Shown here: piece by piece, positions 3,153 through 18,953 of the stretch
How positions within the stretch are numbered: position 1 is the stretch's first letter
How the letters are laid out: the number at the start of each line of letters is the position of its first letter
Virus record (IMG/VR): IMGVR_UViG_3300037234_000381
Location: 1-37,978 of that record
Origin: a virus
Reading direction: 5' to 3' (one strand)
Length of the DNA stretch: 37,978 nucleotides
The notes under the pieces: model-generated
What the model saw: the letters and a program-made list of their open reading frames with translations, nothing else
What the model was told of the DNA's origin: nothing
The model's database searches: none
Program-made: the position numbers and the translations under genes

Positions 3153-3162
3153 AATATCTCCT

Positions 3163-3172
3163 TGATTGCGTT
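3163..3172 (-). promoter_or_regulatory. Copy of the AACGCAATCA leader motif
   Basis: Exact 10-mer followed by AGGAG and the start at 3152. Upstream is TATAGG but no convincing -35, so this copy may act at the RNA level or with a weak promoter. Confidence 0.7.
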
Positions 3173-3453: not shown

Positions 3454-3483
3454 AGTATAGTTTAAAATATTTGTTACGCTCAA
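3454..3483 (-). promoter_or_regulatory. Possible promoter (TTGAGC-N18-TATACT)
   Basis: The minus strand has TTAAACTATACTT immediately before the ATG at 3447. The same 13 bases precede the gene at 16029. TTGAGC sits 18 bases upstream. The -10 is good, the -35 weak. Confidence 0.4.
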
Positions 3484-3947
3484 ATCACCTCAAAGTTTTC
3501 TTTTAGCCATTGTAGGGAGGGTTTTAACTCGTAAGGCTTAAAAATAAGATTTTTCGCTAAAGACCTAACAACCATATTATTCTCTGTATTTATCCAAATT
3601 TTATTGCGTGAGACGGTTTCTATCATAGCCCTCACCCCATTAACTTCCACTTCCACATCTTCACACATCAATAGCCTTGGCTCTAGCTTTATGTCTGAGA
3701 TTTTCAAGTTGATTTCATAAACTAAGGCATCCCCCAAGCAAAAACGCTTACCCCAAATGCCAACTAAATTAGAGCCTACATTGTCTGCAAGCATACTCCC
3801 TACAATAGCCTTAACAAACGCCAGCTTCTTAGGGTCTTGTAAGTCTTCACTCTTGATTATTAGGGTAGGTTCGGTCTTCTTTATAGCCTCTACACCTTCC
3901 TGCATTGTTTGATATTCTTTTTGTCCGTAAGGTTTCATTTCACTCAT
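3480..3947 (-). CDS. Hypothetical protein (155 aa)
   Basis: Unknown mixed alpha/beta protein with no visible motif. The start at 3947 is chosen because AACGCAATCAACAAGGAAATACT precedes it in two parts, leader plus AAGGA; an upstream in-frame ATG lies inside the tRNA-like element and has no ribosome site. It follows the tRNA-like element by about 35 bases and may be co-transcribed with it. Confidence 0.75.
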   Translation of the reverse strand: MSEMKPYGQKEYQTMQEGVEAIKKTEPTLIIKSEDLQDPKKLAFVKAIVGSMLADNVGSNLVGIWGKRFCLGDALVYEINLKISDIKLEPRLLMCEDVEVEVNGVRAMIETVSRNKIWINTENNMVVRSLAKNLIFKPYELKPSLQWLKENFEVI

Positions 3948-3960
3948 AGTATTTCCTTGT

Positions 3961-3970
3961 TGATTGCGTT
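3961..3970 (-). promoter_or_regulatory. Copy of the AACGCAATCA leader motif
   Basis: Exact 10-mer between the tRNA-like element and the gene starting at 3947. No promoter is seen; the message is probably made by read-through and processing of the tRNA-like RNA. Confidence 0.6.
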
Positions 3971-3983
3971 GTGCTAGTGTGAA

Positions 3984-4062
3984 TGTAAGAGGGTAAGGAT
4001 TTGAACCATAGACAAATGCCATTGTAGACACTTCGCTCTACCACTGAGCTAACCCCTCTTAC
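3984..4062 (-). tRNA. tRNA-like element, atypical; anticodon not assignable
   Basis: The minus strand holds a consensus D-arm (TTAGCTCAGTGGTAGAGC), a T-loop (GGTTCAAATCC) and a perfect pairing of the ends, GTAAGAGGG with CCCTCTTAC. The features of a tRNA are therefore present, but spacing is off. Two extra bases lie between the acceptor helix and the D-arm, the T-stem has one mismatch, and the anticodon stem AAGTG/CATTT encloses 10 bases, or can extend to 7 bp around TACAAT. No CCA is encoded. It could be a decayed tRNA, an unusual functional tRNA or the tRNA-like domain of a larger RNA with the hairpins upstream. Confidence 0.55.
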
Positions 4063-4066
4063 ACTC

Positions 4067-4190
4067 TAACCCTATATTGGGGGTTAACCATTTTGCGATA
4101 ATCCCGAATCTTCTCGTATTTAAGGGTTTGCGGCCCAGTTTACGCCACACTGTAATTCTTACAGCAAGCTATTTCTAGCGATTATCACAC
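4067..4190 (-). ncRNA. Candidate structured RNA upstream of the tRNA-like element
   Basis: No gene is visible here. Reading the minus strand, GATAATC (4186-4180) pairs with GATTATC (4103-4097) and closes four hairpins: GCTA-GAAA-TAGC (4168-4179, GNRA loop), CTGTAA-GAA-TTACAG (4150-4164), TGTGGC/GCCGCA (4129-4149) and CGAG-AAGA-TTCG (4105-4116). The first abuts the closing helix and the second and third abut each other. A fifth hairpin, TAACCC/GGGTTA (4067-4086), lies between this domain and the tRNA-like element. A TATATT box at 4196-4201 would start an RNA at about 4189, just before the closing helix. No known class was recognised. Confidence 0.5.
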
Positions 4191-4214
4191 TTATAAATAT
4201 AGTAAATTCTAGCC

Positions 4215-4379
4215 CTAAACGTTACTCAAATCTAAGCTAGTTATGCCCTTCATTCTAAAATTAAGCCTAGTCTTTCTGCTATCCACTTTTGTAACTATTT
4301 TGCAATCAAACTTTGTTATAAACTCCTTGTATTCCCTTAGTGCTTGTTCGTGTACTTGGCTTTCTTGTTGGCTGTTCAT
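4215..4379 (-). CDS. Hypothetical protein (54 aa)
   Basis: Small charged protein, helical at the N-terminus (QQESQVHEQALREYKEFITKF) with a basic, beta-prone C-terminal half. Its ATG overlaps the stop of the upstream gene (ATGA). It ends about 25 bases before the start of the structured-RNA region. Function unknown. Confidence 0.6.
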   Translation of the reverse strand: MNSQQESQVHEQALREYKEFITKFDCKIVTKVDSRKTRLNFRMKGITSLDLSNV

Positions 4380-4546
4380 TCTTTCACCTCTTCAATTATA
4401 CAGCCGTTTTCATCAAGATGTATAGGGGCTAGTTTTTCCTCATCAAATTTCTTTTGAATCTCTGCTGGGGTTATTGATTTAATTAACTCCCCCTTTGAGT
4501 CTCTAATTTCAAGGTTTCCATTCTCTTGATTAACTGATGTAATCAT
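4376..4546 (-). CDS. Hypothetical protein (56 aa)
   Basis: Unknown acidic protein. The ATG at 4546 is chosen because AAAGGAGGAAGA precedes it, the strongest ribosome site in the cluster; an in-frame ATG at 4567 has none and lies within the leader hairpin. It contains a short beta-rich N-terminus and a helix (PAEIQKKFDEEKL). The leader has two stable hairpins that end next to the ribosome site. Confidence 0.7.
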   Translation of the reverse strand: MITSVNQENGNLEIRDSKGELIKSITPAEIQKKFDEEKLAPIHLDENGCIIEEVKE

Positions 4547-4554
4547 TCTTCCTC

Positions 4555-4620
4555 CTTTGGGTGACACAATATCACCCTATTTGGTGTGCTATACGCACCT
4601 ATCTGTCAGTTAGGTGAATA
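4555..4620 (-). promoter_or_regulatory. Structured 5' leader with alternative hairpins
   Basis: On the minus strand CACCTA pairs with TAGGTG and GGGTGA with TCACCC; the second hairpin ends three bases before AAAGGAGG. A competing pairing, GGTG with CACC (or GTGC with GCAC), uses the 3' arm of the first hairpin. This is the geometry of a translational switch or of a protein-binding operator on RNA. No known riboswitch was recognised. Confidence 0.35.
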
Positions 4621-6381: not shown

Positions 6382-6393
6382 GTTTGTTCTCCT

Positions 6394-6437
6394 TGATTGC
6401 GTTTACTACAATATAGAAACCCTATCTAAAATAACAA
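6394..6437 (-). promoter_or_regulatory. Early promoter with AACGCAATCA leader
   Basis: Minus strand: ACCC, TTGTTA (6437-6432), 16 bases, TATATT (6415-6410), six bases, then AACGCAATCAAGGAG (from 6403). Transcription would start at or next to the first A of the conserved 10-mer. Architecture matches the promoters at 9.15 and 12.37 kb. Confidence 0.8.
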
Positions 6438-6456: not shown

Positions 6457-6765
6457 TTATTTCTTTTGTGTCCAATAGAACCCCTTAGCCCTAGCTCTTG
6501 GATTGTTCAGTACCCTATAAATGTTTTTTGCACTACAACCCACGGCTTGAGCACACTCTTCTATCGTCTTAAAAGTGGCTATTACATCGCCCTCTTTCCC
6601 CCTTTGCTGTATTCTCTTTGGGATTGTTGGGGGTCTAACTTGATTCCCTAGGATTACCCATTGGTGCCCATTCTTTTGGGCAATAATTTTTCCTGAGTTT
6701 ATTAATTGTTGAACCCTTGTTCTTGTTATTCCGTTCTTTTTTGCAAATGTTGTTACTGTATCCAT
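6457..6765 (-). CDS. HTH protein with NUMOD1-like C-terminal domain (102 aa)
   Basis: Residues 1-40 (TVTTFAKKNGITRTRVQQLI, then SGKIIAQ) form a MerR/excisionase-like winged helix-turn-helix. Residues about 60-100 (GDVIATFKTIEECAQAVGCS, then AKNIYRVLNN) resemble the NUMOD1 module, a DNA-binding repeat of homing endonucleases and regulators. No nuclease domain is present, so a DNA-binding regulator is the likely role. It sits upstream of an early promoter. The domain assignments rest on sequence pattern alone. Confidence 0.7.
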   Translation of the reverse strand: MDTVTTFAKKNGITRTRVQQLINSGKIIAQKNGHQWVILGNQVRPPTIPKRIQQRGKEGDVIATFKTIEECAQAVGCSAKNIYRVLNNPRARAKGFYWTQKK

Positions 6766-7116: not shown

Positions 7117-7337
7117 AAGTTATCAAACTCAATAATAGGGACGATTAACCAAGTAGCATGCTTATCAAACTCATAGGCATTCTCAAGGGCTTCTTGTTCA
7201 GTGTCAAATACTTCTTTTGGTGTATCTTCGCTATACCAAGAACCTTGAACTCTTCCATACGATAACTTTACATTTACATCTTGGTCTACTCTTTGGGATT
7301 CTACTTGAATAGCCGTGTATTTTTTCATTACTTTCAC
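7113..7337 (-). CDS. Hypothetical protein (74 aa), GTG start
   Basis: Unknown, acidic, mixed alpha/beta protein. The GTG at 7337 overlaps the stop of ninB (GTGA) and has GGAG five bases upstream; an ATG three codons later is the alternative but has worse spacing. Contains DTEQEALENAYEFDK, a typical short helix. Confidence 0.65.
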   Translation of the reverse strand: MKVMKKYTAIQVESQRVDQDVNVKLSYGRVQGSWYSEDTPKEVFDTEQEALENAYEFDKHATWLIVPIIEFDNF

Positions 7338-7747
7338 AGTTTCTCCGATGGTTCAGGAACTACAAAATTGTAGTAATCCCTTAAATATTCAATTATCACA
7401 AAGATGTAGTTTGCAAATTCATCTACTTTCATTGTGGTTGTGGATTGTGGGACTTTAAAACTTCCCTCTTTTGTTTCTACTTCCATTGATAGAAATTTCA
7501 AGCGCATTGCTTCGTGGGCTTGCTCGTGATTCACTAGCTTGATTCCCATTTCAGCAAAGGCTTTAAATACGCTTGGAATCACTACACCCCAGTAGTACCT
7601 GTTTGCTCGGTTCCTGCGTGTGTTTTTCCATTCCTTGATGGCTATCTCTACCTTTTTTCCATTAAGCTCCTTGAGGGCTTCTATGGTTTCCCACGCTTTG
7701 TCAAGGTGCAGGACTTCGCCCTCTACGCTTCCAAGTAGTTTAGCCAC
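7334..7747 (-). CDS. ninB: NinB-like recombination protein (137 aa)
   Basis: Member of the NinB/Orf family, which in lambdoid phages binds single-stranded DNA and can replace host RecFOR functions in phage recombination. The family signature is visible in the middle: EIAIKEWKNTRRNRANRYYWGVV (two pieces), then a helix with HEAMRLKFLSME, and the C-terminal TTTMKVDEFANYIFVIIEYL. Length is close to the family norm of about 140. It pairs functionally with ERF, Gp157-like and RusA proteins encoded on the other strand. Confidence 0.85.
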   Translation of the reverse strand: MAKLLGSVEGEVLHLDKAWETIEALKELNGKKVEIAIKEWKNTRRNRANRYYWGVVIPSVFKAFAEMGIKLVNHEQAHEAMRLKFLSMEVETKEGSFKVPQSTTTMKVDEFANYIFVIIEYLRDYYNFVVPEPSEKL

Positions 7748-9112: not shown

Positions 9113-9126
9113 GTTAATTTCCTTGT

Positions 9127-9173
9127 TGATTGCGTTGTTGAGTTAATTATAGAATAATAGATTTAGATTACAA
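9127..9173 (-). promoter_or_regulatory. Early promoter with AACGCAATCA leader
   Basis: Minus strand: ACCC, TTGTAA (9173-9168), 16 bases, TATAAT (9151-9146), nine bases, then AACGCAATCA (9136-9127). The -10 is a perfect consensus. The -35 overlaps the stop codon of the upstream gene. Confidence 0.85.
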
Positions 9174-12359: not shown

Positions 12360-12408
12360 TTGTTTTCTATTTTCATTAAGCTATACTTTAGAAAACGCAA
12401 TCAAGGAG
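12360..12408 (+). promoter_or_regulatory. Early promoter with AACGCAATCA leader
   Basis: ACCC, TTGTTT (12360-12365), 16 bases, TATACT (12382-12387), six bases, then AACGCAATCAAGGAG (from 12394). Transcription would start at the conserved 10-mer. Controls the plus-strand early operon. Confidence 0.85.
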
Positions 12409-12593: not shown

Positions 12594-12648
12594 AACGCAA
12601 TCAAGACAACTATTCGGAATTACCCAATAGTTCAATCAAGGAGATACA
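12594..12648 (+). promoter_or_regulatory. Second leader copy with hairpin
   Basis: Directly after the stop codon at 12591, AACGCAATCAAG is followed by a hairpin (AACTATT/AATAGTT, 12608-12632) and a second CAATCAAGGAG before the ATG at 12649. No promoter is seen; it looks like a duplicated leader split by a stem-loop. Confidence 0.65.
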
Positions 12649-15044: not shown

Positions 15045-15054
15045 AACGCAATCA
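15045..15054 (+). promoter_or_regulatory. Copy of the AACGCAATCA leader motif
   Basis: Exact 10-mer, then AAAGGAAATAAA and the ATG at 15066. No promoter is visible upstream, so this copy probably serves translation or RNA processing. Confidence 0.6.
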
Positions 15055-15065
15055 AAGGAAATAAA

Positions 15066-17779: not shown

Positions 17780-17815
17780 GTTATCTTGTAATTAATCATT
17801 GGTCTCCTTAGACTT

Positions 17816-17825
17816 TGATTGCGTT
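17816..17825 (-). promoter_or_regulatory. Copy of the AACGCAATCA motif beside the terminator
   Basis: Exact 10-mer on the minus strand directly after the T-run of the late-operon terminator, followed by AAGTCTAAGGAGACC and a 17-codon frame from ATG. It looks like a leader left from a lost gene or a landing site for one. Confidence 0.5.
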
Positions 17826-17862: not shown

Positions 17863-18295
17863 ATGGATTGAAAAAATAAATTGACTCTACAAACTCTCTT
17901 GTAAATTCAATATGGCACCAAGTAGGCGTATTTATAAACGTTTCTACTCGCTTAATACCATAAGTAGCACCATGTTTTTTAATAAATTCCTGCAAGGGCT
18001 TAATATTACTTTCATCGTAATGCTTCAAGTCAAAAGCATAGCCGAACTTGTGAGAACTTCTTGAAGCTCCAGTAGTTGTGTGAATGTCTCTAAGCCCACT
18101 TTCTGAATATCTCCCACCGCTCACCCAATCATTGATTTTCAAAGCCTTTCCATAGTCATTTCTAAGATTGTCTAGTGATTGTAGGGCTTTCTCATCAAAG
18201 AGCTTAAAGGCGTACTCCCCTAGCTTGTCATAGGTTTTGGGAGTGACTAGCTCCTGAATAATAAAGTTGGTCGTTTTATATGTGTGATTTGGCAT
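17861..18295 (-). CDS. M15-family peptidase, endolysin (144 aa)
   Basis: Probable peptidoglycan peptidase. The zinc site of the M15A/M15_3 type is complete: SSHKFGYAFD with His82 and Asp89, and WCHIEF with His128. The preceding GGRYSESGLRD and GASRS match the fold. No signal peptide, so release to the periplasm would need a holin, which is not identified with certainty. It is the last gene of the late operon and overlaps the lipase gene by 20 bases. Length fits single-domain phage enzymes of this group. Confidence 0.88.
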   Translation of the reverse strand: MPNHTYKTTNFIIQELVTPKTYDKLGEYAFKLFDEKALQSLDNLRNDYGKALKINDWVSGGRYSESGLRDIHTTTGASRSSHKFGYAFDLKHYDESNIKPLQEFIKKHGATYGIKRVETFINTPTWCHIEFTREFVESIYFFNP

Positions 18296-18953
18296 ACTGT
18301 CCCAATTCCTTTTCTAAAAGTTTTTCATACGTTGATATTTTGTGATTCTTAAAGTTGAAATAGTCAGGCGTTTTAACACATAACATATCACTTGACTTGT
18401 GTTTGAATATTCTGAACACCCACCCGAAAATAAAAGGCATCTTTGTTACAGGGTCGCTGTCAATCTGAACCCTCAAATGTAACCCCTTAGGCTTTGCTCT
18501 AGGTAGCCATACCCTAGGGCTTCCAAATGTTACACACTCGGAATCTATCCTATGCTGCGTTCTCAAAAGTTGCTGAATTACTTGAGCAATAGCACCGCCG
18601 TAGCTGTGACCACTCAAGACTATCTTAAAGCCCCTTTCCTTAGCGTGGTTAAGCTGTGGCAAGCAATAGTTTAAAATACTCTTAGAGGAGCTTAAAAAGC
18701 CTCCATGTAAATAACCCACCCCTTTTAATCTGCTTGGAAAAATTGACATATCTTTGAGCAAGTCTACCAAGTCATCAGTTCCACGGAATGACAAAAACAA
18801 AATCTTATCTTCATTGTCAAAGTGCCAAATCCAAGAGTCATTTTTGAAAGAATCGCTTTTAAGGTCGTCAGTCAAAAAAGCCCCCTTATCATACGATAGG
18901 GAGGCGTAAAAAACTGATTCAATAGCTAGGCTAAGTTTCGTATTGCGTTTCAA
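18276..18953 (-). CDS. Class 3 lipase in the lysis region (225 aa)
   Basis: Alpha/beta hydrolase of the lipase class 3 family. It has the oxyanion motif FRGT (56-59), HGGF (83-86), nucleophile elbow GHSYGG with Ser117, FGSPRV after the next strand, Asp165 or Asp167 in QIDSDPVTKMP, and His204 in KNHKIS. The full triad suggests activity on a lipid ester. No signal peptide. The start is TTG at 18953, overlapping the upstream stop, since no ATG keeps the FRGT motif. Next to the endolysin, it may help disrupt membranes at lysis or act in the virion. Confidence 0.85.
   Translation of the reverse strand: MKRNTKLSLAIESVFYASLSYDKGAFLTDDLKSDSFKNDSWIWHFDNEDKILFLSFRGTDDLVDLLKDMSIFPSRLKGVGYLHGGFLSSSKSILNYCLPQLNHAKERGFKIVLSGHSYGGAIAQVIQQLLRTQHRIDSECVTFGSPRVWLPRAKPKGLHLRVQIDSDPVTKMPFIFGWVFRIFKHKSSDMLCVKTPDYFNFKNHKISTYEKLLEKELGQYAKSHI

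What the first reader, a model, noticed from the sequence alone, without database searches (positions are those of the whole stretch)
4067..4190. Unrecognised multi-hairpin RNA upstream of a tRNA-like element
A gene-free stretch folds by eye into a closed domain: a 7-bp helix around four tightly packed hairpins (one with a GAAA loop), then another perfect hairpin, then the tRNA-like element. A -10 box would start the RNA just before the closing helix. The packing with few spare bases argues for selection. It could be a tRNA-linked phage RNA of unknown type or one RNA with a tRNA-like 3' domain.
Basis: partly seen in the sequence, partly recalled or inferred. Interest (0 to 1): 0.8.

Follow-up and report, generated by a model that had tools for sequence, protein, structure and literature searches.

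The report
Orphan phage RNA beside tRNA-like element
A virus of bacteria carries, between two genes, a stretch that very probably folds into a compact branched RNA sitting directly against a misshapen tRNA; no relative of it could be found, so it is a believable new small phage RNA whose function is unproven.

Summary
A 6-bp hairpin (4086-4067) follows, then with no spacer a tRNA-like cloverleaf (4066-3981). Against shuffles: 22 of 10,000 reach the energy, 1 of 10,000 reaches the architecture, none both. Energy z alone is not exceptional in this genome, but no other sampled stretch (15-nt steps) gives a four-branched domain closed by a >=10-bp helix. It fills the longest gap (267 nt) of the leftward operon of a P22-like podovirus. 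The tRNA-like scores as tRNA (34.1 bits, cut-off 29) and keeps the elbow bases, but has a 13-bp acceptor stem, no 7-nt anticodon loop and no CCA.

Interpretation is only partly supported. No Rfam family, phage, plasmid or viral contig gave a credible homologue; the two close relatives (L083, L084) end before this region, so covariation was untestable. The -10 box exists but lacks a -35. Best reading: an orphan phage structured RNA, processed by tRNA-maturation nucleases at the adjoining tRNA-like element (known analogues: phi80 M3 RNA, P1/P7 C4 RNA). Function inferred, not shown.

The parts
4094..4189 (-). Closed multi-branch domain: 10-bp helix UGUGAUAAUC (4189-4180) / GAUUAUCGCA (4103-4094) enclosing four hairpins
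   Evidence: MFE structure, pair probabilities 0.94-1.0 except the outermost pair
4168..4179 (-). Hairpin 1, GCUA-GAAA-UAGC (GNRA tetraloop)
   Evidence: fold
4149..4165 (-). Hairpin 2, GCUGUAAGAAUUACAGU, 7-bp stem
   Evidence: fold
4130..4148 (-). Hairpin 3, GUGGC...GCCGC, 5-bp stem
   Evidence: fold
4105..4116 (-). Hairpin 4, CGAGAAGAUUCG, 3-4 bp
   Evidence: fold
4067..4086 (-). Hairpin 5, UAACCC/GGGUUA, directly abutting the tRNA-like element
   Evidence: fold
3981..4066 (-). tRNA-like cloverleaf with 13-bp extended acceptor stem (4066-4054 / 3993-3981), D arm 4049-4035, anticodon-like arm 4033-4014 (6-, 8- or 10-nt loop), T arm 4010-3994
   Evidence: ARAGORN 'tRNA-???', Rfam RF00005 34.1 bits, fold
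4196..4201 (-). -10-like TATATT; start of transcription would fall near 4190; no -35
   Evidence: sequence; not listed by promoter scan
3952..3970 (-). Phage-wide 5'-leader motif AACGCAATCAACAAGGAAA before the 155-aa gene
3480..3947 (-). Downstream gene, 155 aa, no known family, no relative found
4215..4379 (-). Upstream gene, 54 aa, overlaps the stop of 4376-4567, no known family

Best explanation
A phage-encoded structured non-coding RNA about 100-125 nt long (4190-4067), made as part of the leftward operon or from a weak or activator-dependent start near 4190, followed without spacer by a degenerate tRNA that no longer looks able to decode. The tRNA-like element most likely acts as a processing signal: host RNase P (and possibly RNase Z) recognises its acceptor/T-arm fold and cuts there, releasing the upstream structured RNA as a stable small RNA and leaving the downstream mRNA a new 5' end in front of the phage's standard leader. 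Shown: the sequence, the predicted fold and its excess over shuffles, the tRNA-like match, the gap between genes. Inferred: transcription, processing, stability. The activity of the released domain is unknown; a trans-acting RNA (decoy or antisense) seems likeliest but nothing here tests it.
For: Fold beats shuffles and does not depend on context. Longest gap in an operon of overlapping genes. The tRNA-like passes the Rfam cut-off and keeps U8, A9, G18-G19, a UUCAAAU T loop and a possible G15-C48 pair, the elbow features tRNA-processing enzymes recognise (sequence; established tRNA knowledge), while the anticodon arm cannot form a 5-bp stem with a 7-nt loop. Precedent: RNase P processes phage M3 RNA (phi80) and the phage P1/P7 C4 antisense RNA precursor (PMC11143913). 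The gene after the tRNA-like has the common leader motif but no upstream promoter of the type seen before 12394(+), 9136(-) and 6403(-).
Against: No homologue, so no covariation. No expression data. Other windows in the genome have equal or better energy z. The leader and trailer of the tRNA-like pair with each other (13-bp stem), which can hinder RNase P, and no CCA is encoded. Folding energy does not favour the T stem (pair probability at most 0.3) and the D stem is only 0.33.
Confidence: 0.4

Rival explanations
1. A cis-acting leader element: the whole 4190-3981 structure stays in the operon mRNA and controls read-through or translation of the 155-aa gene and the packaging genes beyond it, comparable in role to lambdoid late leaders or antiterminator RNAs such as HK022 put.
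For: It lies in the mRNA upstream of the 155-aa gene's leader, between the ninB-like region (7334-7747) and the small terminase gene (1418-1828), about where lambdoid phages keep Q and the late promoter (own knowledge; PBR31 has an annotated Q between early genes and terminase).
Against: No terminator was found just downstream on this strand except a weak site at 3792-3774; no scanned gene matches a known Q; a tRNA cloverleaf is not expected in such leaders.
Confidence: 0.25
2. A decaying relic: a captured tRNA (and perhaps a second, older tRNA upstream) losing its function; the fold is left over, with no present role.
For: The tRNA-like is degenerate (no 7-nt anticodon loop, weak score of 34.1 bits against 40 to 72 for tRNAs of one bacterial genome). 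The upstream domain also has four arms in a closing stem.
Against: The 13-bp acceptor stem has no mismatch, unlike a decaying gene; the upstream domain has no tRNA sequence signal even at E<=10; packed phage genomes usually shed relics (own knowledge); no integrase was seen among the proteins scanned, so an attachment-site relic is unlikely.
Confidence: 0.18
3. The upstream domain is a chance fold in a gap of the genome and only the tRNA-like is meaningful.
For: Energy z scores this good occur in about 2% of windows of this genome; no relative supports the fold.
Against: The four-branched domain with >=10-bp closure arises in 1 of 10,000 shuffles and nowhere else in the sampled genome.
Confidence: 0.15

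Closest known systems
RNase P-processed phage RNAs: phi80 M3 RNA and P1/P7 C4 antisense RNA (PMC11143913)
   Same: Small phage RNAs whose maturation uses host RNase P, as proposed here
   Different: No sequence match to any Rfam family, and RNase P cleavage is untested here; this one is joined to a nearly complete tRNA cloverleaf
GOLLD and ROOL ornate phage RNAs (PMC12286853)
   Same: Structured phage RNAs of unknown function encoded near phage tRNAs; [quoted passage not shown]
   Different: GOLLD members often exceed 800 nt; this one is about 125 nt and no Rfam model other than tRNA matched even at E<=10
T4 RNA C and RNA D (own knowledge; one search found no paper)
   Same: Small stable phage RNAs of unknown function next to tRNAs
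   Different: No sequence match seen; T4 has a cluster of working tRNAs, here one degenerate tRNA-like
tRNA (RF00005)
   Same: Cloverleaf, D-loop GG, T-loop UUCAAAU, U8-A9
   Different: 13-bp acceptor stem, 20-nt anticodon arm without a 7-nt loop, no encoded CCA, weak score

Membership tests
tRNA (for 3985-4059) | Covariance-model score above the Rfam gathering cut-off | tested here: met
   34.1 bits against 29
tRNA (for 3985-4059) | Five-bp anticodon stem with 7-nt loop and an assignable anticodon | tested here: not met
   ARAGORN gives 'tRNA-???' with a four-base anticodon; the 20-nt arm folds as 7 bp with a 6-nt loop
tRNA (for 3985-4059) | Aminoacylation and use in translation | not testable with these tools
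   needs biochemistry
GOLLD / ROOL / C4 RNA / any Rfam family (for 4067-4190) | Match to the family covariance model | tested here: not met
   cmscan with permissive filters, E<=10: only tRNA at 3986-4058
RNase P-processed phage RNA | Cleavage by RNase P at the tRNA-like element | not testable with these tools
   needs an in vitro cleavage assay
Conserved structured RNA | Compensatory changes in homologues | tested here: inconclusive
   no homologue reached; close relatives L083 and L084 end before the region

The most novel reading that the evidence does not exclude
A single phage RNA of about 210 nt (4190-3981) made of a five-way-junction domain, a linker hairpin stacked end to end on the tRNA-like stem, and a tRNA-like 3' domain with an altered anticodon arm, acting in trans as a tRNA mimic, for example as a decoy for a host tRNA-targeting defence or as a frameshifting tRNA with an 8-nt loop.
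Probability: 0.08. Interest if true: 0.8.

Novelty: new member of a known kind. Interest (0 to 1): 0.38.

Why it matters
Phages carry small structured RNAs that annotation pipelines ignore. If real, this is an unclassified RNA with a built-in processing signal in a P22-like podovirus genome, and a small, testable case of a tRNA-like element kept for something other than decoding.

Tried and rejected
Rfam at the gathering score and at E<=10: nothing but tRNA. DNA similarity in phages and plasmids: nothing beyond tRNA-like or chance matches. Close relatives through head, TerL, Erf, primosomal, NinB and two neighbouring proteins: only L083 (97% head identity) and L084 (80%) are close, and both end before the region. 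Two genome-contig scans: none for TerL, six distant Erf relatives. Single-sequence covariance model R1 on 95 sources (window plus 94 loci) and on 8 P22-like phage records: nothing credible but the window itself. R1 on 298 Campylobacterota genomes: four weak hits, best E 0.09, taken as chance; that phylum is probably not the host (head protein in 1 of 298). A three-part DNA pattern over viral contigs gave 15 matches, none confirmed by R1. An outer helix GUGUGA/UCACAC round the whole RNA is possible but improbable (pair probabilities at most 0.024). A tRNA-integrase attachment site: no integrase among the proteins scanned.

Full report
Setting. The window is a near-complete 38-kb genome of a P22-like podovirus: coat, portal, scaffold, head-closure and DNA-ejection proteins match PHROGs families, and its two ends lie together inside the large terminase gene, which L083 spans. 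Genes on the minus strand run from about 12.25 kb down to 1 and on through the structural genes. A ninB-like gene (7334-7747) and a small terminase gene (1418-1828) frame the region of interest. The host is unknown; the closest coat proteins belong to phages of Pseudomonas and Xanthomonas, at 33-36% identity.

Observation. Between a 54-aa gene (4215-4379) and a 155-aa gene (3480-3947) lies a 267-nt gap, the longest among the leftward genes I took as likely, whose median gap is -4. Its minus strand folds at -37.9 kcal/mol for 4190-4067, z -3.5, and at -71.5 kcal/mol with the tRNA-like included, z -4.7. The four enclosed hairpins, the GAAA loop, the following perfect hairpin and the tRNA-like are as described. 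The closing helix of the branched domain, hairpin 5 and the 13-bp stem keep their pair probabilities in 221 to 871 nt of surrounding transcript.

Chance. Of 10,000 dinucleotide shuffles, 22 reach the energy, 50 give a four-branched domain with a closing helix of at least 7 bp, 1 with at least 10 bp, and none with this energy. Along the genome, energy z alone is not remarkable: about 25 of 1,222 windows are as good. The combination of four branches and a closing helix of at least 10 bp occurs only here among 5,048 windows. The test was designed after seeing the structure, so I read it as good but not conclusive.

The tRNA-like. ARAGORN calls 'tRNA-???' with a four-base anticodon and Rfam gives 34.1 bits, against 40 to 72 bits for the tRNAs of one bacterial genome. 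Elbow features are present (U8, A9, GG in the D loop, UUCAAAU T loop, a T stem UAUGG/CCUUA with one U-U mismatch), but the acceptor stem extends to 13 bp, the anticodon arm is 20 nt and folds as a 7-bp stem with a 6-nt loop, and no CCA is encoded. It is unlikely to decode normally.

Transcription. A -10-like TATATT (4201-4196) would start RNA near 4190, at the closing helix, but no -35 is present. Three other places in the genome carry a clear TTGTWW-16-TATAWT type promoter followed by the leader AACGCAATCAA (12394 +, 9136 -, 6403 -, read by eye). The 155-aa gene has the same leader just after the tRNA-like but no such promoter. This fits, without proving, the idea that processing at the tRNA-like supplies that mRNA's 5' end.

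Relatives. None was found for the RNA. The two near relatives of the phage are fragments that stop short of the region.

Mechanism. Host RNase P is known to process phage RNAs (phi80 M3, P1/P7 C4; PMC11143913), and a tRNA-like elbow directly abutting a compact RNA domain is what such a processing signal would look like. I give this 0.4. A cis-acting operon leader is the main rival. Membership of GOLLD, ROOL, C4 or any other Rfam family was tested for 4067-4190 and not met.

Verdict. A credible orphan structured phage RNA: observation confirmed with small corrections, interpretation partly supported, function open.

Noticed in passing
window 3162-3170 -, 3960-3968 -, 6393-6401 -, 9126-9134 -, 12396-12404 +, 12596-12604 +, 15047-15055 +, 17815-17823 -: The 5'-leader motif CGCAATCAA occurs 8 times (0.25 expected), mostly as AACGCAATCAAGGAG-like sequence just before a start codon on both strands; possibly a phage-wide translation or regulatory signal.
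   Followed up: partly
window about 12360-12395 +, 9170-9136 -, 6440-6403 -: Shared promoter-like pattern CCCTTGT...16 nt...TATAWT right before the leader motif (read by eye).
   Followed up: partly
window 6457-6765 -: 102-aa protein with helix-turn-helix and NUMOD-like similarity below the Pfam cut-offs.
   Followed up: no
window 18276-18953 -: Class 3 lipase (PF01764, E 5.7e-17) in the late region, among the genes after the tail proteins.
   Followed up: no
window ends; L083 2400-2520: Window ends are an arbitrary cut inside the large terminase gene; the IMG/VR record is a near-complete genome lacking only about 10 bases there by comparison with L083.
   Followed up: yes
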